Source: Panopea generosa
Lineage: Eukaryota > Mollusca > Bivalvia > Adapedonta > Hiatellidae
Assembly (NCBI GenBank): GCA_029582155.1
Contig: CM055903.1
Span: 41,523,353 to 41,587,352, forward strand
DNA: 64,000 bases
Reading direction: 5' to 3'
Part shown: piece after piece, positions 2,791-64,000 of the stretch
How the letters are laid out: the number at the start of each line of letters is the position of its first letter
Position numbering within the stretch: position 1 is the stretch's first letter
Position numbers and translations under genes: made by a program
Notes under the pieces: generated by a model
The model's database searches: none
What the model saw: only the letters and a program-made list of their open reading frames with translations
Told to the model about the DNA's origin: nothing

Positions 2791-2950
2791 TCATCAATTG
2801 TTTGGGAAATGATGCCCAACTCAGAAATAACAGCAGTAATTTGAATATTGATATGTATTTATACCATTTGAAAAAATAATGTATGTATTTGTGAATATTT
2901 ACCATTTATGTCCAAAAGGTTTGAGAGTTGTTTCTAGAGGTAAATTTTAC
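2791..2950. other. Short unique spacer after the satellite
   Basis: AT-rich sequence between the end of the 40-bp satellite and the first copy of the 355-bp repeat. I see no gene, RNA or regulatory motif. Part of it, with TTTGAGAGTTGTTTCTAGAGG, resembles the ends of the following repeat units and may belong to that repeat. Confidence 0.5.
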
Positions 2951-3995
2951 GCTGAGTCCGAAAGTCTATTTCTTACTAACTGCTGTTTGGGCGTTTGGTC
3001 ACAAATCCAAGATGGCCGTCAAAATGGCCACCAAATATTGAAATTCACGTTATAATATATAATCTGATAGAAAACACTGCAAAATGTTAAAGTTTGGATT
3101 TATTGTGTTGTTGTAAGTTGTACGACACGTTTTAGAGTAATTTTCCATAAAAAATGATTGTTTCAAGTATAAAAAGTCTAAATAAGGGACAAAATGGCTG
3201 CCAAAATATGAAAAAAAATTACACTTTTTTCTGCAATTATATTCATTTAGTTGAATGCTTTGGTCTTATTTTTATTTATAAATGCTTGCTTCTATACGTT
3301 AACTATATGCTGAGTCCGAAAATCTATAATCTCTTATTAACGGTTGTTGGGGTGTTAGGTCACAAATCCAAGATGGCCGCCAAAATGGCCACCAAATATT
3401 GAAATTAATGTTATAATATATAATCTGCAAATATTAAAATTGAGATTTATTGTGTTGTTGTAAGTTGTATAACATGTTTTAGGGTAAAAAAGAGTAAAAA
3501 TATGGTTGATTCAATCATGGTTGATATGAAGTCTAAACAAAGGGCAAAATGACAATTAAAATATGAAAAAAATGACACTTTTTCTGTAAATATACGCATC
3601 TGGTGAATGCTTTGGCCGTTTATCTATTTATAAATGCTTGTTTCTGGAGGTAAAATGTATGCTGAGTCTGAAAATATATTTCTTACAAACGGCTGTTGGG
3701 GTATTTGGTAACAAATTCAAGATGGCTACCAAATTGGCCGTCAAATATTGATATTCATGTTATATATAATCTGATAGAAAACACTAAATAAAATTTAGAT
3801 TGATTTTGTTGTTGCAGGTTTTATGTCACGTTTTATGATAAAATAAGTAAAAAGATGGTTCATTCATGTACAACAAGTCTAAATAAGGGAATAAATGGCT
3901 GCCAAAATATGGGGAAAAATGGCACTTTTTTCTGCAAATATACGCATTTGGTGAATGCTTTGGGCCTTATTTTTATTTATAAATGGTTCTAAAAA
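2951..3995. repeat. About 355-bp repeat in three tandem copies with AAGATGGCC core
   Basis: Three diverged direct copies begin with GCTGAGTCCG or GCTGAGTCTG at 2951, 3309 and 3661, giving periods of 358 and 352 bp. Each carries an ACAAATCCAAGATGGCC-type core followed by AAAATGGCC and an ATATTGAAATT stretch, then a GATTTATTGTGTTGTTGTAAG stretch and an AAATGGCTGCCAAAATATG segment. The third copy is the most diverged and fades out near 3990. A related fragment lies at about 38440-38500. The short open frames here (3154-3402 on plus, 3879-4067 on minus) are repeat shadows. Confidence 0.88.
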
Positions 3996-4687: not shown

Positions 4688-5170
4688 CCTAAGTTGCCGT
4701 ACGTGTTGTCACATTACAATTATTTAAATCTAATTGCCATAAGCGTTGCCACGTTACTATTGTTTTAGATCTAGTTGCCATAAGCGTTGCAATATGACGC
4801 CTATTTATATCTAGATGCCATAAGTGTTATCACATGACAATTATTTAGATCGGGTTGCCATAAGCGTTGTCACATGGCAATTATTTAGATCTAGTTGCAA
4901 TAAGCGTTGTCGCATGACACTTATTTAGATCTAGTTGCCATAAGCAGTGTCACATGACAATTATTTAGATCGGGTTGCCATAAGCGTTGTCACATGGCAA
5001 TTATTTAGATCTATTTGCCATAAGCGTTGTCACATGACAATTATTTAGATCTAGTTGCCGTGAGTGTTGTCACATGACAGTTTTTTCTTCTTCTTTATAT
5101 TTGTTATAAGCGTGATTTTTTTGTCGTCGTCATACACATGGCAACATGGCTGTTATTCACATCTAGTTGC
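4688..5170. repeat. 40-bp satellite array, block 2 (about 10 units plus decayed edge)
   Basis: Ten units with the same 40-bp period as block 1 run from about 4688 to 5080. They use a diverged consensus, with TTGCCATAAGCGTTGTCACA in place of TTACCATAAACATGGCCACA. A further decayed unit is recognisable at about 5125-5170 (CACATGGCAACATGGCTGTT). Because the last unit of block 1 is already of this type, the two blocks were probably one array that was split by, or fused across, the 2.8-4.7 kb segment. Confidence 0.93.
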
Positions 5171-5445: not shown

Positions 5446-5837
5446 GGAAAATGTCTGACAATACTAGTAAAAAGCAACTTCATATTGACATTCATTGAAT
5501 TTCGACCACATAAAAAACAATATTGTCTTGTATAATCAAAAGCAATTGTATCGATATATATGACAATTTTGCAAGAAGCCAATTTACTTTATATTGTTTA
5601 TATGAATTATTTTATGGTTAATATAAAGAACGCATACTTTGATAGCAAAGTGTTAATTAAAACGGTGCAACAGTCAATTGTAATTTATTGTACGGTGTTA
5701 ACTTTTTAGTTTTAAAAATCAATAAATCAGACATTATGATAATTCTGCTGCGTGACAGTTGTCTAAGAGCTGTCACATTGAATCATTCCACATGAACCTG
5801 GTGTGATACCCCCATCGTTTTAAATACCGGCACAGCC
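5446..5837. other. Non-coding AT-rich spacer
   Basis: About 390 bp of low-GC sequence between the promoter-like cluster and a SINE. Apart from the short frame starting at 5431 there is no coding signal, and no repeat match elsewhere in the window was noticed. Confidence 0.45.
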
Positions 5838-26621: not shown

Positions 26622-26754
26622 GTTTTCCTGTGTAGAACCAGTACTAAGCAAATGTGGAACAAGGACACCACACATAGCCGTGGCGGAGGATCGGACCCAC
26701 GGCCCTCCGGTCATGGATTCGGAGCTCTACCACTAGACCACGTTGCCAGTTACT
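26622..26754 (-). mobile_element. tRNA-derived SINE, family D-like, reverse copy with distinct head
   Basis: The inverted head (GAGCTCTACCACTAGACCAC, A box; GGATCGGACCCACGG, B box) is well preserved and GC-rich. The 3' word CCTGTGTAGAACCAGTACTA links it to the preceding copy. Its head differs from that of the 26450 copy, so the two may be different tRNA-head subfamilies sharing one tail. Confidence 0.8.
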
Positions 26755-28315: not shown

Positions 28316-31005
28316 CATAGCCTTTTATGCAAGACACTTTCAGCAAGACAGGGACATACTCTTTAACGCAATCAGGTATAGAGAGAACTTTTTTCAGAAG
28401 AATAGGGCACAGTATATAACATTCCCTTTTATACCAGACACTTTCAGCAGGACAGGGACGTAGTCTGTAAGGCATCTTGGTAGAGAGGATACTTTCAGAA
28501 GTATAGTGACGCAGTCTGTAACGCAACCTTTTGTACCAAACACTTTCAGCAAGACAGGGACGTAGTCTATAAGGCAACCTGGTATAGAGGACACTTTCAG
28601 AAGTATAGTGACGCAGTCTGTAACGCAACCTTTTGTACCAAACACTTTCAACAAGACAGGGACGTAGTCTATAAGGCAACCTGGTATAGAGGACACTTTC
28701 AGAAGTATAGTGACGCAGTCTGTAACGCAACCTTTTGTACCAAACACTTTCAACAAGACAGGGACGTAGTCTATAAGGCAACCTGGTATAGAGGATACTT
28801 TCAGAAGTATAGTGACGCAGTCTGTAACGCAAACTTTTATACCAAACACTTTCAGCAAGACAGGGACATGATCTGTAAGGCAACCTGGTATAGAGGATAT
28901 TTTCAGGAGTATAGTGACGCAGTCTGTAACACAACCTTTTATACCAAACACTTTCAGCAAGATAGGGACGTAGTCTATAAGGCAACCTGGTATAGAGGAC
29001 ACTTTCAGAAGTATAGTGACGCAGTCTGTAACGCAACCTTTTATACCAAACACTTTCAGCAAGACAGGGACGAAGTCTATAAGGCAACCTGGTATAGAGG
29101 ACACTTTCAGGAGTATACTGACGCAGTCTGTAACGCAACCTTTTATACCAACCACTTTCAGCAAGACAGGGACGTAGTCTATAAGGCAACCTGGTATAGA
29201 GGACACTTTCAGAAGTATAGTGACGCAGTCTGTAACGCAACCTTTTATACCAACCACTTTCAGCAAGACAGGGACGTAGTCTATAAGGCAACCTGGTATA
29301 GAGGACACTTTCAGAAGTATAGTGACGCAGTCTGTAACACAACCTTTTATACCAAACACTTTCAACAAGACAGGGACGTAGTCTATAAGGCAACTTGGTA
29401 TAGAGGACACTTTCAGAAGTATAGTGACGCAGTTTGAAACGCTACCTTTTATACCAAACACTTTCAACAAGACAGGGACGTGGTCTATAAGGCAATCTGG
29501 TATAGAGGACACTTTCAGAAGAATAGGGACGCAGTCTGTAACACAACCTTTTATACCAAACACTTTCAACAAGACAGGGACGTAGTCTATAAGGCAACCT
29601 GATATAGAAGACACTTTCAGAAGTATAGTGACGCAGTTTGAAACACAACCTTTTATACCAAACACTTTCAACAAGACAGGGACGTAGTCTATAAGGCAAC
29701 CTGGTATAGAGGACACTTTCAGAAGTAAAGTGACGCAGTCTGTAACACAACCTTTTATACCAAACACTTTCAACAAGACAGGGACGTAGTCTATAAGGCA
29801 ACCTGGTATAGAGGACACTTTCAAAAGTATAGTGACGCAGTCTGTAACACAACCTTTTATACCAAACACTTTCAACAAGACAGGGACGTAGTCTATAAGG
29901 CAACCTGATATAGAGGACACTTTCAGAAGTATAGTGACGCAGTCTGTAACGCAACCTTTTATACCGAACACTTTCAACAAGTCAGGGACATAGTCTATAA
30001 GGCAACCTGGTATAGAGGACACTTTCAGAAGTATAGTGACGCAGTGTGTAACGCAACCTTTTGTACCAAACACTTTCAACAAGACAGGGACGTAGTCTAT
30101 AAGGCAACCTGGTATAGAGGATACTTTCAGAAGTATAGTGACGCAGTCTGTAACGCAAACTTTTATGCCAAACACTTTCAGCATGACAAGGACGTGGTCT
30201 GTAAGGCAACCTGGTATAGATGACACTTTCAAAAGTATAGTGACGCAGTCTGTAACACAACCTTTTATACCAAACACTTTCAACAAGACAGGGACGTAGT
30301 CTATAAGGCAACCTGGTATAGAGGACACTTTCAGAAGTATAGTGACGCAGTCTGTAACGCAACCTTTTATACCAAACACTTTCAACAAGACAGGGATGTA
30401 GTCTATAGGGCAACCTGGTATAGAGGACACTTTCAGGAGTATAGTGACGCAGTCTGTAACACAACCTTTTATACCAAACACTTTCAACAAGACAGGGACG
30501 TAGTCTATAAGGCAACCTGGTATAGAGGACACTTTCAGAAGTACAGTGACGCAGTCTGTAACGCAACTTTTTATACCAAACACTTTCAGCAAAACAGGGA
30601 CGTGGTCTATAAGGCAACCTGGTATAGAGGATACTTTCAGAAGTATAGTGACGCAGTCTGTAACACAACCTTTTATACCAAACACTTTCAGCAAGACAGG
30701 GACGTAGTCTATAAGGCAACCTGGTATAGAGGACACTTTCAGAAGTATAGTGACGCAGTCTGTAACGCAACCTTTTATACCAAACACTTTAAACAATACA
30801 GGGACGTAGTCTATAAGGCAACCTGGTATAGAGGACTCTTTCAGGAGTATAGTGACGCAGTCTGTAACACAACCTTTTATACCAAACACTTTCAGCAAGA
30901 CAGGTTGATAATCTATAAGGCAACCTGGTATAGAAGACACTTTCAGAAGTATAGTGACGCAGTCTGTAACGCAACCTTTTATACCAAACACTTTCAGCAG
31001 CCTGG
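28316..31005. repeat. 102-bp dimeric minisatellite, about 26 units, open in three frames
   Basis: The 102-bp unit recurs about 26 times with high similarity. It is itself a dimer of two related 51-bp halves, one with TATACCAAACACTTTCAGCA and one with TATAGAGGACACTTTCAGAA, matching at about 37 of 51 positions. Because 102 is divisible by three and the consensus lacks stops in three frames, open frames follow: 865 codons on minus (28394-30991), up to 363 codons in another minus frame, and up to 189 codons on plus. The 865-codon frame would encode 34-residue repeats (VFGIKGCVTDCVTILLK, then VSSIPGCLIDYVPVLLK). No promoter, splice context or known domain supports any frame, so I treat this as a minisatellite. 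The edge units at 28316-28440 and after 30990 are decayed. Confidence 0.96.
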
Positions 31006-35465: not shown

Positions 35466-36494
35466 ATATTCAGAATAGTGCTTTTATTTAGCTAGTTTGT
35501 CACTCGCAGGTGTCTAGATAATGAACGCCGCTTTTGTTTATGTTCAATTTTCCAATCGCATTATCACCTGTACGATTTAAGTTTATACGATCAGGATAAT
35601 TTTTAGTACTTGTTATTGCAGTTATCCCCAAGTTCACCTGGAAATTACTTGATAATATAGATAACATAATAATATATATTGGAAAGAAATACTGTTTAGA
35701 ATTTAACAATTATAGAGTATAGAGTTCAAATTTAAAAATCATTGAAACATTCAGCATAGATTCTGGATAAAAAAGAAAATATTTTAGCAATTCTAAATAT
35801 GCTTTTGAATCAATCTTATCTCACGTTTCTATATTGTACTGTTTTTTTGTATAAATTATTAACATATTATATAAACAAATATTTTGAAACAAAATATGAA
35901 TTGAATAAGAAATAAAAAATAAAACCGTTAAAAATGAAAAAAAGAATCGGATTCAAAATTGAAATAAGAACACTATTTAGTTTTAAAGAAGTACGTTTCT
36001 TAAACACAACCGTGTGCTGTTATCTTACCGCTCCGTCAGGTGAAATTCTGTAAGTTTAATATCTTTAAAATTCAAAGTTTCACACCAAGCAGAATATGTT
36101 ATATAACTAGAATGACATTCTATAACCAAATGCTTGCCTTATATGTATCAAAACTAAAAATACCATGACTCGAACACTCATCTTAACGGGGTGCTAAATT
36201 ATCAGTGATTCCAACAACCTTTAAGCCTAGGTATAGAAATAAATATTTCTAATGCCAGTGCAATGCCTTGAAATTCAAAAAATTATTATGACTGGAACGT
36301 GTGTTCTCTGTAACTGGTACGCCCACAGCTGAACAAACATTTTCTAAGTTTTTGGTACTTGAAAAATCATGCTGAAAAAGGAGATTTAATATCTGTTTAA
36401 ATAGGTTTATACGCCGGGGAAGTAATAATTATTGAGGGAAAAAAATGCAAGTTAAATAACTTAGTATCCAAGAAGTATTCACTCTTTAATATTA
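35466..36494. other. Unique AT-rich non-coding stretch
   Basis: About 1 kb, A/T homopolymer rich, no coding or RNA signal. The 69-codon minus frame at 35500-35709 is unremarkable. Confidence 0.45.
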
Positions 36495-36659
36495 CCGCAG
36501 CGGTGGTCTAGTGTTAGAGTGTCCGCCTTGCATGCAGAAGTTCGTAAGCTCGATCCGCAGCCGGGATACCAAAGATTTGGAAAATTATACTAGTAGCCTC
36601 CTCGCTTGGCGCGTCATCATTTAGAGCATTGTAGGTATGGTCGGCCGGTGTCAGTATAA
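36495..36659 (+). mobile_element. 5' head of tRNA-derived SINE, family C, leading into a 94-bp array
   Basis: GGTGGTCTAGTGTTAGAGTG (A box) and AAGTTCGTAAGCTCGATCC (B box) lie at tRNA-like spacing. The next 90 bp form the SINE body. The sequence then passes without a break into the first 94-bp unit at 36660. The reverse copy at 63450-63738 has the same order (head, body, one such unit, tail), which shows that the array is the expanded 3' part of this SINE. Confidence 0.88.
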
Positions 36660-38258
36660 TGTGACTGGTGGGGTATCATACCATGTGTCTGCGGCGTGAT
36701 ACTTCAGTGTGGCAGCGCTCAGAATACTGTCTCAAGTAGACACCGTCGCGATATGTGACTGGTGGGGTATCATACCATGTGTCTGTGGCATGATACTTCA
36801 GAGTGGCAGCGCTCAGAATACTGTCTCAAGTAGACACCGTCGCGATATGTGACTGGTGGGGTATCATACCATGTGTCTGCGGCGTGATACTTCTGTGTGA
36901 CAATGCTCAGAATACTGTCTCAAGTAGATACCGTCGCGATATGTGACTGGTGGGGTATCATGCCATGTGTCTGCGGCGTGATAATTCAGTGTGGCAGCGC
37001 TCAGAATACTGTCTCAAGTAGACACCGTCGCGATATGTGACTGGTGAGGTATCATGCCATGTGTCTGCGGCGTGATACTTCAGTGTGGTAATGCTCAGAA
37101 TACTGTCTCAAGTAGACACCGTCGCGATATGTGACTGGTGGGATATCATACCATGTGTTGGCGGCGTGATACTTCAGTGTGGCAGCGCTCAGAATACTGT
37201 CTCAAGTAGACACCGTCGCGATATGTGACTGGTGGGGTATCATAACATGTGTCTGCGGCGTGATACTTCAGTGTGGCAGCGCTCAGAATACTGTCTCAAG
37301 TAGACACCGTCGCAATATGTGACTGGTGGGATATCATACCATGTGTCTGCGGCGTGATACTTCAGAGTGGCAGCACTCAGAATACTGTCTCAAGTAGACA
37401 CCGTCGCGATATGTTACTGGTGGGGTTTTCATACCATGTGTCTGCGGCATGATACTTCAGTGTGGCAACGCTCAGAATACTGTCTCAAGTAGACACCGTC
37501 GCGATATGTGACTGGTGGGGTATCATACCATGTGTCTGCAGCGTGATACTTCAGTGTGGCAGCGCTCAGAATACTGTCTCAAGTAGACACCGTCGCGATA
37601 TGTGACTGGTGGGGTATCATACCATGTGTCTGTGGCATGATACTTCAGAGTGGCAGCGCTCAGAATACTGTCTCAAGTAGACATCGTCGCGATATGTGAC
37701 TGGTGGGGTATCATACCATGTGTCTGCGGCGTGATACTTCAGTGTGGCAATGCTCAGAATACTGTCTCAAGTAGACACCGTCGCGATATGTGACTGGTGG
37801 GGTATCATGCCATGTGTCTGCGGCGTGATACTTCAGTGTGGTAATGCTCAGAATACTGTCTCAAGTAGACACCGTCGCGATATGTGACTGGTGGGGTATC
37901 ATACCATGTTTCTGTGGCATGATACTTCAGAGTGGCAGCGCTCAGAGTACTGTCTCAAGTAGACACCGTCGCGATATGTGACTGGTGGGGTACCATACCA
38001 TGTGTCTGCGGCGTGATACTTCAGTGTGGCAATGCTCAGAATACTGTCTCAAGTAGACACCGTCGCGATATGTGACTGGTGGGGTATCATACCATGTGTC
38101 TGCGGCGTGATACTTCAGTGTGGTAATGCTCAGAATACTGTCTCAAGTAGACACCGTCGCGATATGTGACTGGTGGGGTATCATAACATGTGTCTGCGGC
38201 GTAATACTTCAGTGTGGCAGCGCTCAGAATACTGTTTCAAGTAGACACCGTCGCGATA
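36660..38258 (+). repeat. 94-bp satellite, 17 units, amplified from the SINE 3' region
   Basis: Units start TGTGACTGGTGGGGTATCAT at 36660, 36754, 36848 and so on at 94-bp steps, with one extra base near 37430, through 38165. Each contains TGTCTGCGGCGTGATACTTC, GCGCTCAGAATACTGTCTCA and a terminal ACACCGTCGCGATA. Units differ by few substitutions, so amplification is recent or the array is homogenised. Variants such as TCTGTGGCATGATACTTCAG recur in units 2, 11 and 14, a sign of unequal exchange between non-adjacent units. The array is bounded by the SINE head on the left and GATATAACTGAAC-type SINE tail on the right. The plus frame 38120-38398 across the last unit is not a gene. Confidence 0.97.
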
Positions 38259-38310
38259 TAACTGAACAAGTGTTGACAGTGACGCTTAACAACATACAAC
38301 GTCAACTACA
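38259..38310 (+). mobile_element. 3' tail of the same family C SINE
   Basis: After the last 94-bp unit the sequence runs ATAACTGAACAAGTGTTGAC and GACGCTTAACAACATACAAC. It resembles, with divergence, the tail of the 63.5-kb copy (GATATGACTGAAAACAAT, then GCGACATTAAAAC). This places the array inside, not beside, the SINE. Confidence 0.65.
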
Positions 38311-38520
38311 TTCTTCAATATTTAGTGGGGTAATATGGTGCAGAATATTTTGCATTTTTTTAGAAACGCACCAAACTTGGCACATAGTAAAAGGTTAACT
38401 AATTATTTTAACACCGAGACCCACTTTCATAAAAGCGGGAAATCTAAGATGGCCGACAAAATGGCTGCCAAATTTTACAAATTTCACTTTTATCTTTATA
38501 TTTACACTATTTTATGACAT
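38311..38520. repeat. Fragment related to the AAGATGGCC repeat of 2.9-4.0 kb
   Basis: AAATCTAAGATGGCCGACAA and AATGGCTGCCAAATTTTACA resemble the core of the 355-bp repeat (CAAGATGGCCGCCAAAATGG). The flanks do not align well, so only a short piece is shared. Confidence 0.45.
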
Positions 38521-43308: not shown

Positions 43309-43988
43309 CATGAACACATTTAATATCAGCAATAATTACAAATCACCATGAACACATTTAATATCAGGAATAATTACAAATCACCATGAACACATTTGAT
43401 ATCAGGAATAATTACAAATCACCATGAACACATTTAATATCAGGAATAATTACATATAACCATGAATACATTTGATATCAGGAATAATTACAAGTTATCA
43501 TGAACACATTTAATATCAGGAATAATTACAAATCACCACGAACACATTAAGTAACAGGAATAATTATAAGTCATCATGAACACATTTAATATCTGGACTA
43601 GTTACAAATCACCATGAACACATTTAATATCTGGATTAATTACAAATCACCATAAACACATTTGATATCAGGAATAATTTCAAGTCTTCATAAACACATT
43701 TATATCAGGAATAATTGCAAATCACCATAAACACATTTAATATCAGGAATAATTACAAATCACCATGAACACATTTGATATAAGGAATAATTACAAATCA
43801 CCATCAAAACATTTAATATTAGGAATATTTACAAATCACCATAAACACATTTTATATCAGGAATAATTACAAATAACCATGAACACATTTTATATCAGGA
43901 ATAATTACAAATCACAATCAAAACATTTAATATCAGGAATAATTACAAATCACAATCAAAACATTTAATATCAGGAATACTTACAGAA
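43309..43988. repeat. 38-bp minisatellite, about 18 units
   Basis: The unit contains CACCATGAACACATTTAATA and TCAGGAATAATTACAAAT with a 38-bp period. Variants (ATAAAC for ATGAAC, GATATC for AATATC) are scattered. Units are contiguous with no unique spacers and the array has no palindromic repeat, so this is not a CRISPR. Confidence 0.96.
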
Positions 43989-57227: not shown

Positions 57228-57980
57228 AAATGTAGTATATAAATAGCTTGGCTTAGAAATTAAGCGTGTGAAACAAATGTAGTATATATAGTTTGACTTG
57301 GAAATTAGGCGTATGGAACGAGTGTAACATATAAATTGTCTGGCTTAAAAATTAAGCGTGTGAAACGAGTGTAGTATATAAATAGTCTGGCTTAGAAAGT
57401 AAGCGTGTGAAACGAGTGTAGTGTATAAATAGCATGGCTTAGAAATTAAACGTGTGAAACGAATGTAGTATATAAATAATCTGGCTTAAAATTAAGCGTG
57501 TGAAACGAGTGTGATGTATAAAAAGCGTGGTTTAGAAATATAGCGTTTGAAACGAATGTAGTATATAAAAAGTGTAAATTGGACATTAGGCGTGTGAAAC
57601 AAGTGTAGTATATACATTGTCTGGCTTAGAAATTAAGCGTGTGAAACAAGTGTAGTATATAAATTGTCTGGCTTAAAAATTAAGCGTGTGAAACGAGTGT
57701 AGTATATAAATAGTCTGGCTTAGAAAGTAAGCGTGTGCAACGAGTGTAGTGTATAAATAGCATTACTTAGAAATAAAACGTATGAAACGAGTGAAGTATA
57801 TAAATAATCTGGCTTAAAACTAAGCGTGTGAAACGAGTGTAATGTATAAAAAGCGTGGCTTAGAAATATAGCGTTTGAAACGAATGTAGTATATAAACAG
57901 TGTGACTTAAAAATTAGGCATCTGATACAAATATAGTAAATAAATATTATAGCTCAGAAATCAAACGTCTAATACGAATG
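57228..57980. repeat. 47-bp minisatellite with 328-bp higher-order period
   Basis: Units of about 47 bp contain GTAGTATATAAATAG, TCTGGCTTAGAAATTAAGCG and TGTGAAACGAGT. The segment starting at about 57333 is repeated at 57661 in the same variant order, a higher-order period of 328 bp (seven units). The last units are decayed. Confidence 0.93.
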
Positions 57981-58157
57981 TACAGTCAAATCTGTCTTAA
58001 GCAGCCAGTCAAGGGAAGGAGCGAAAATGGCCTTTAAAGACAGGTTGTTGCTTAATAGAGGTTAATATGCTCTAAAAGCATAGAAATGAGAAGTAGAAAA
58101 TGTGGCTGCTTAAGACAGGTGGCTGCTTAATAGACCACATACACAGGTTTGGCTGTA
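57981..58157. mobile_element. MITE, family M1, copy 4, inserted in the 47-bp array
   Basis: Complete copy with ends TACAGTCAAATCTGTCTTAAG and GACAGGTGGCTGC...ACAGGTTTGGCTGTA, 15-bp inverted repeats within TA. It lies in the opposite orientation to the 27.85- and 43.08-kb copies. The 47-bp array resumes right after it, so the MITE is younger than the array. Confidence 0.9.
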
Positions 58158-63449: not shown

Positions 63450-63738
63450 CTATATTGGTGTTTTAATGTCGCTATTATGTTTTATTGTTTTCAGTCATAT
63501 CACGACAATTTTTGCTTGAGGCAGTATTCTAATCACTGCCACAATGGATTACTCTGCCACATACACGTGTTGTAATACCCCACCCAGTCACATTATAACA
63601 AGCATCTAACTACTGCTGAACGCCAAACGAAGAAGATTTGGCACGTGGAACCATTTTGTAATCTTGGGTATGAGACGACCGGGCATCGAACCCACAACAT
63701 TCTACGTGCAAATAGGACAACCTATCACTAAGACAACG
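63450..63738 (-). mobile_element. tRNA-derived SINE, family C, full-length single-unit copy
   Basis: On the minus strand: A box TTGTCTTAGTGATAGGTTGT, B box TGTGGGTTCGATGCCCG, a body with GATTACAAAATGGTTCCACG, then one copy of the 94-bp unit (TGTGACTGGGTGGGGTATTA, TGTGGCAGTGATTAGAATAC, TGCCTCAAGC) and the tail GATATGACTGAAAACAAT. It gives the normal structure from which the 17-unit array at 36.66-38.26 kb was expanded. Confidence 0.9.
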
Positions 63739-64000
63739 CATGTTATCTTTATGAAGGATGTAATAATTTATTATTTGATAAATCATATATTAGTGTTTCA
63801 ATATTACGGTCAATGATGACTATTTTTATAGATGGTTAAAGTTCATTAGGCAATAATAAATTTCTTGCTAGATTATCATCCTCGATCGCCCCCTTATTTT
63901 CATGCCGCCCCAAACATTTTTAAAAAACAAAACAAAAAAACACTAAAAACTAAAAAAAAAAAAAAATTTAAAAAAAATAATATTCGCCCCACTCCCCCTT
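63739..64000. other. Non-coding window end
   Basis: AT-rich sequence ending in A-rich (63908-63975) and C-rich runs. Nothing else is recognised. Confidence 0.5.

What the first reader, a model, noticed from the sequence alone, without database searches (positions are those of the whole stretch)
36495..38310. A satellite being born inside a SINE: 17 copies of a 94-bp SINE segment between intact head and tail
Seen in the sequence: a tRNA-like SINE head runs into 17 contiguous 94-bp units, and the array then exits into SINE tail sequence. The reverse-strand copy at 63450-63738 has the same parts in the same order with just one unit. The array therefore arose by in-place expansion of a defined internal SINE module. 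Variant units recurring at non-adjacent positions (2, 11, 14) point to ongoing unequal exchange. Known background: bivalve Helitron-like 'pearl' elements carry internal tandem repeats, but a pol III SINE with the same behaviour is less familiar to me.
Basis: partly seen in the sequence, partly recalled or inferred. Interest (0 to 1): 0.78.

Follow-up and report, generated by a model that had tools for sequence, protein, structure and literature searches.

The report
Satellite array grown inside a SINE
A small mobile element (a tRNA-derived SINE) in this genome has had one 94-base internal piece copied into a row of 17, and other copies of the element carry their own separately grown rows, which shows how repetitive satellite DNA can start; the same kind of thing is already known from reptiles.

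Summary
A tRNA-derived SINE (36494-38311) holds 17 tandem copies of a 94-95 bp internal segment between its own head and tail, inside an 11-bp target-site duplication (10/11 identical). All 29 other SINE copies fetched by head similarity carry one unit. A paired entry/exit pattern finds 4,291 places at one-unit spacing and 6 at two-unit spacing. This array's junction occurs 14 times in 1.47 Gb, all here. About 40 other places hold arrays (ten not read); 35 of 37 array rows parsed keep at least one SINE end. Unit consensuses of 29 arrays are star-like around the SINE consensus (0.81 between arrays; 0.79 expected for independent origins), and 577 of 585 units are nearest only to a unit of their own array. 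So the arrays grew separately and in place, not by spread of one satellite or of a multi-unit SINE. In 24 of 37 rows the commonest register is 93 bp; the window's junction is private. SINE-derived satellites are already published (squamates 2023; limpet 2024), so this is a new member of a known kind. "Ongoing" exchange is not shown, and what fixes the shared register is unexplained.

The parts
36483..36493 (+). 5' target-site duplication (11 bp, 10/11 identical to the 3' copy)
36494..36658 (+). SINE head; its first ~70 bp correspond to the tRNA-like part of the consensus. In this copy it has decayed: no tRNA call
   Evidence: 85% of 160 compared columns identical to the 29-locus consensus; tRNA found in the consensus by ARAGORN and in L038 by Rfam; none in this copy
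36659..38257 (+). array of 17 tandem units (94 bp, unit 9 95 bp); the units read CTGGTGGGG where the SINE consensus has CTGGGTGGGG
37600..38163 (+). possible block duplication inside the array: units 11-13 repeated as units 14-16
   Evidence: 162 of 5,000 shuffles reach it
38258..38311 (+). SINE 3' tail following directly on unit 17
38312..38322 (+). 3' target-site duplication
63450..63739 (-). old one-unit copy of the same SINE (head, one unit, tail)
   Evidence: tail beyond 63488 by reading only
26682..26742 (-). fragment of a SINE head (consensus 9-69, 81%)
5685..5812 (-). fragment of SINE unit plus tail (consensus 183-310, 66%)

Best explanation
A one-unit tRNA-derived SINE, sharing several base states with an older subfamily, was retroposed at this site (shown: head, tail, target-site duplication; one-unit start inferred from the family). 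Later the segment between an ATG-containing site at its start and one at its end was duplicated at this locus, with a junction found nowhere else in the genome (shown). The duplicate then grew to 17 units by misaligned exchange or replication slippage between units, including duplication of blocks of several units (inferred from recurring variants). The same happened separately at about 40 other places, most often in a 93-bp register with a TGACTG repeat at the two borders (separate growth supported by star-like unit sequences in the 29 arrays compared; the molecular cause is inferred). No function was shown or sought; it is best seen as an early satellite.
For: Array bounded by SINE head and tail with a target-site duplication placed as in one-unit copies. 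29 of 29 head-selected SINEs have one unit. Window junction: 14 exact hits in 1.47 Gb, all in this array. 4,291 places at one-unit spacing, 6 at two-unit spacing. 29 arrays compared: between-array consensus identity 0.809 against 0.790 expected for a star; 577 of 585 units have their nearest neighbour only in their own array. Clearly different registers besides 93: 95 (window), 88 (L057), 80 (L047), 62 and 60 (L053, L075); 92 and 91 may be the 93-bp register with an indel. Two forms of the 93-bp junction, GATATGACTG in most rows and ATGTGACTG in L051, L052, L054 and L064, plus the window's own.
Against: The 6-bp TGACTG repeat is not the longest direct repeat in the SINE (8- and 7-bp ones exist), and 297 of 300 shuffles hold a repeat of 6 or more at spacing 40-160. 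So microhomology alone does not explain why this register recurs. Two- and three-unit intermediates are scarce: of the six two-unit-length places one (C10:54,838,307) has the length of a 93-bp dimer with a diverged first unit and could not be read to the end, and one (C10:55,297,006) shows a two-copy repeat of about 55 bp. The exact-border test cannot see old copies, since none of 34 array regions passes it either. Window units (93% to the SINE consensus) are less diverged than the same copy's head (85%) and tail (83%), which plain neutral in-place growth does not predict; L063 and L067 look alike in this. One assembly: copy number in life was not seen.
Confidence: 0.85

Rival explanations
1. 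A multi-unit SINE master copy was retroposed and scattered arrays with units already in tandem.
For: 24 of 37 array rows have 93 bp as commonest register, as one dimeric ancestor would give; many share G at unit position 55 (18 of 29 arrays; 0 of 27 head-selected single copies) and head states such as T at -33 (the window copy lacks this one).
Against: The G also occurs at 8 of the first 100 listed places of a unit pattern genome-wide (unit number there not checked), so it probably marks an older subfamily. Only 6 two-unit-length places, at most one or two of them possible 93-bp dimers. Different registers and junction forms; star-like unit sequences; the window junction is private. 185 of the 242 matches to the 93-bp junction (up to 2 mismatches) lie in array regions already fetched.
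Confidence: 0.08
2. A pre-existing satellite was captured by, or converts between, SINE copies, and spreads from array to array.
For: Units closer to the SINE consensus than head and tail at the window, L063 and L067, as conversion from younger copies would give. Slightly more states shared by four or more arrays than simulated (15 against a mean of 10.7).
Against: Within-array identity 0.92 against 0.81 between arrays; 577 of 585 units are nearest only to their own array; at least one SINE end in 35 of 37 rows; arrays differ in register.
Confidence: 0.05
3. It is a Helitron-like 'pearl' element carrying internal tandem repeats, moved as a whole.
Against: tRNA-derived head in the family, target-site duplication, ACA-repeat tail in the family, private junction. 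Helitron ends were not searched for.
Confidence: 0.01

Closest known systems
SINE-derived satellites (sSat1-3) of squamate reptiles, PMC10702118 (abstract, sections 3, 5, 19 and found passages read)
   Same: Tandem repeats of an internal part of a tRNA-derived SINE, SINE sequence kept at array ends, homogeneous within loci, subvariants alternating, most variants thought to have independent origins.
   Different: There most sSats have a longer terminal unit at one end, and loci with both SINE ends are called minor variants; here 22 of 37 rows keep both. Most snakes have up to thousands of loci with one repeat design (mean unit similarity 89% in a sample of 45 cobra loci); here about 41 places were found, 81% alike between arrays. 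sSats prefer subtelomeres; here 3 of 40 places lie within 5% of a chromosome end. The main text has no occurrence of 'microhomology', 'direct repeat' or 'target site'.
PcH-sat of the limpet Patella caerulea, PMC11121367 (abstract and discussion read)
   Same: Mollusc satellite containing a segment of a SINE (Nin-SINE).
   Different: A 179-bp pericentromeric satellite at about 10% of the genome; no SINE copy with an array between its own head and tail is described in the parts read.
Helitron-like 'pearl' elements of bivalves (recalled)
   Same: Interspersed element with internal tandem repeats.
   Different: No tRNA head and no target-site duplication in Helitrons (recalled); both present here.

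Membership tests
tRNA-derived SINE | tRNA-like head with pol III promoter | tested here: met
   Family consensus: ARAGORN tRNA at 3-74, run at a lowered threshold; Rfam tRNA 31.2 bits in L038, 1 of 4 copies tried. Not in the window copy itself.
tRNA-derived SINE | target-site duplications | tested here: met
   Window copy 10/11 bp; clear in many one-unit copies, e.g. L013-L018, L027, L035; several one-unit copies and most other array copies tested show none above chance.
tRNA-derived SINE | many dispersed copies | tested here: met
   16,268 unit-to-tail matches at up to 2 mismatches, control 2.
tRNA-derived SINE | pol III transcription and partner LINE | not testable with these tools
   No RNA data; the LINE was not sought.
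SINE-derived satellite (sSat) | tandem unit is part of an identified SINE family | tested here: met
   Unit consensus of the window array is 96% identical to the one-unit SINE (79 columns).
SINE-derived satellite (sSat) | SINE sequence continues from at least one array end | tested here: met
   Both ends in the window; at least one end in 35 of 37 rows.
SINE-derived satellite (sSat) | subtelomeric preference (reported property, not a strict definition) | tested here: not met
   3 of 40 places within 5% of an end; mean relative distance 0.58 where 0 is the end and 1 the middle, KS p = 0.016 against uniform.
Helitron-like pearl element | no target-site duplication, no tRNA head (recalled) | tested here: not met
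   Both present.
MetaSINE / V-SINE superfamilies | conserved central domain | not tested
   Domain sequences not at hand; the MetaSINE paper is not held.

The most novel reading that the evidence does not exclude
The SINE's central segment is a repeatedly igniting satellite seed: in one genome it has been turned into tandem arrays dozens of separate times, usually in the same register, and often in single large steps (for instance template switching or a circular intermediate) rather than through dimers, so that copies nearly always have either one unit or four and more.
Probability: 0.2. Interest if true: 0.65.

Novelty: new member of a known kind. Interest (0 to 1): 0.42.

Why it matters
How satellites start is usually inferred from finished arrays. 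Here one genome offers thousands of one-unit copies of the same element and about 41 array places, with 4 to over 90 units where read, many still framed by the element's ends, so start points, junctions and growth can be read locus by locus and compared between individuals or related species.

Tried and rejected
Microhomology as full cause: TGACTG borders the 93-bp register, but longer repeats exist in the SINE and six-base repeats are expected by chance; kept as a border mark only.

Single-hit places as two-unit SINEs: five places had one exact hit; L069, L071, L072 and L073 are one-unit copies or fragments and L070 is an array of about 20 units. Of the ten small regions, three are arrays (L070, L074, L075) and seven show no repeated unit.

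Absence of dimers as proof of one-step growth: weakened. None of 34 array regions passes the exact border pattern, against 12 of 29 one-unit copies; two of the six two-unit-length places remain possible two-copy repeats; and the tally leaves out rows with fewer than 3 units by construction.

Units evolving more slowly than flanks everywhere: units exceed heads in 17 of 19 array rows, but tails exceed heads as much, so subfamily differences in the head explain most of it; only the window, L063 and L067 stand out against both.

The first junction parser was too permissive and was replaced. One search failed with a script error and was repeated. A paper search for in-situ wording and one for letters of the unit found nothing. 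Rows dropped before the star test: L041, L042 (copies of L039), L045 (overlaps L044), L030 and L037 (several separate SINEs), and loci with under 3 units usable in the compared 79 columns.

Full report
The window lies at C10:41,523,353-41,587,352 of an unnamed 1.47-Gb genome with 39 contigs.

Observation. The array is real and the coordinates are good: 17 units at 36659-38257 between a SINE head (36494-36658) and tail (38258-38311). An 11-bp direct repeat, 10 of 11 identical, sits immediately outside both ends (36483-36493 and 38312-38322); 19 of 20,000 shuffles and 19 of 5,000 random pairs of window sites score as high with the same placement rule. Many one-unit copies show duplications in the same positions, others do not; most other array copies tested show none above chance. 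So the whole is most simply a retroposed SINE.

The element. From 29 copies fetched by similarity to the window's head (L010-L038) the consensus is a head of 170 bp, a 95-bp unit and a tail of about 53 bp ending in ACA repeats. ARAGORN, at a lowered threshold, finds a tRNA in the consensus head, and 1 of 4 copies tried reaches Rfam's tRNA threshold; the window's copy has decayed and gives no tRNA. All 29 carry one unit. This sample is biased to copies like the window's head. Genome-wide, the unit-to-tail border has 16,268 matches at up to 2 mismatches (control 2) and the head-to-unit border 39,525 (control 151). With exact borders, 4,291 places have the spacing of one unit and 6 that of two (control 0 in both). 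Of these six only the first 80 letters were printed: two are interrupted by foreign sequence (C2, C7), one has a short local duplication (C14), one repeats about 55 bp including the head-unit border (C10:55,297,006), one has the right length for a 93-bp dimer behind a diverged first unit (C10:54,838,307), and one is undecided (C5). These exact patterns favour young copies: 12 of 29 one-unit copies pass, none of 34 array regions does.

Other arrays. The first DNA search (39 candidates scored of 13,466) and a second with another array (40 of 8,299) list arrays; with two more from pattern hits (L074, L075) I count about 41 places including the window, a triplicated one on C14 taken once. I read 30 regions and ten small ones; ten array places could not be fetched and are known from alignments only. 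In 37 array rows from 34 regions (rows with at least 3 units; one array is seen twice in overlapping regions; at least five are cut by the ends of the fetched DNA) 29 have at least 40 bp of head, 28 at least 20 bp of tail, 22 both, 2 neither (L049 and L065; L065 is cut). Rows have 3 to 94 units; the row of 3 is one part of an interrupted array (L057), the smallest whole arrays have 4. The count of places is a lower bound, and the DNA searches favour long arrays like the query.

Registers and junctions. In 24 of 37 rows the commonest jump is in a 93-bp register, typically from consensus unit position 96 back to 4 with a shared TGACTG. Others use 80 (L047), 88 (L057), and 62 or 60 (L053, L075); 91 and 92 (L061, L044, L045, L051, L055) may be the 93-bp register with an indel. 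The window is alone in using 95, with a 1-bp deletion that makes the unit 94; its junction occurs 14 times in the genome, all in this array. The 93-bp junction itself occurs in two forms. TGACTG is not the longest repeat in the element, so why this register recurs is open.

Separate growth. Among 29 arrays the consensus units are 0.809 identical to each other, against 0.790 expected if each had left the SINE consensus on its own; 577 of 585 units have their nearest neighbour only within their own array; L063 is the exception, with 2 of its 5 units. Mean within-array identity is 0.92 and mean identity of array consensus to the SINE 0.89 (33 loci). G at unit position 55 is in 18 of 29 arrays and 0 of 27 head-selected single copies, but at 8 of the first 100 listed places of a 26-base unit pattern on contig C1 (unit number there not checked). 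With head states such as T at -33 (15 of 17 other arrays, 2 of 29 single copies; absent in the window copy) it probably marks an older SINE subfamily, in which most of these arrays sit. The identity slightly above the star value, and more states shared by four or more arrays than simulated (15 against 10.7 on average; states shared by two or more are fewer, 58 against 69.6), fit that.

Growth inside the window array. Variants 33T/37A/49A recur in units 2, 11 and 14, and units 11-13 match 14-16; 162 of 5,000 orders do as well for blocks of three, 3,506 for blocks of two. This is a mark of block exchange, modest in strength. Identity does not fall with distance between units.

Results against a simple story. 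Window units (93% to the SINE consensus) are less diverged than the same copy's head (85%) and tail (83%); for the unit consensus against head plus tail, 3 of 79 and 30 of 195, Fisher p = 0.007. L063 and L067 show the same direction (not tested apart). Conversion from younger copies or a younger array in an old SINE would do this; across all arrays the effect is mostly a head difference between subfamilies. The arrays do not favour chromosome ends (3 of 40 within 5%).

Place in the literature. SINE-derived satellites are described from 56 squamate genomes (PMC10702118; abstract, sections 3, 5, 19 and passages read), with internal units, SINE ends and alternating subvariants. A limpet satellite contains a Nin-SINE part (PMC11121367; abstract and discussion read). 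In a survey of bivalve transposons (PMC10294476; passages only) I saw nothing on such arrays. The listings of my paper searches showed no report of this SINE's arrays; that library lacks most subscription papers and the MetaSINE paper. Hence: a known kind, here often with both ends kept, a target-site duplication in the window copy, and a partial census that points to many separate starts in one genome.

Noticed in passing
1-2747, 2928-3985, 4692-5086: A 40-bp minisatellite (68 copies, then about 10 more some 2 kb on) with three diverged copies of a 349-bp repeat between the two blocks.
   Followed up: no
28321-30996: Array of 26 units of 102 bp, 93% alike; the unit looks by eye like a dimer of about 51 bp.
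   Followed up: no
43309-43985 and 57231-57982: 38-bp array (18 copies) and 47-bp array (16 copies, with a 328-bp higher-order period).
   Followed up: no
C1:4754221-4754839 of G000 (not fetched), L053, L075: A second SINE-derived array type with a 60-62 bp unit spanning the head-unit border; in L053 it occurs together with 93-bp units in one locus.
   Followed up: partly
   Followed up: no
L039, L041, L042 (C14:25.26-25.65 Mb): Nearly the same array in three copies within 400 kb, in both orientations: a local duplication or an assembly duplicate.
   Followed up: no
L032, 3' end of the SINE: The ACA tail has grown into a longer run of ACA/GCA triplets, a second way this SINE seeds tandem repeats.
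   Followed up: no
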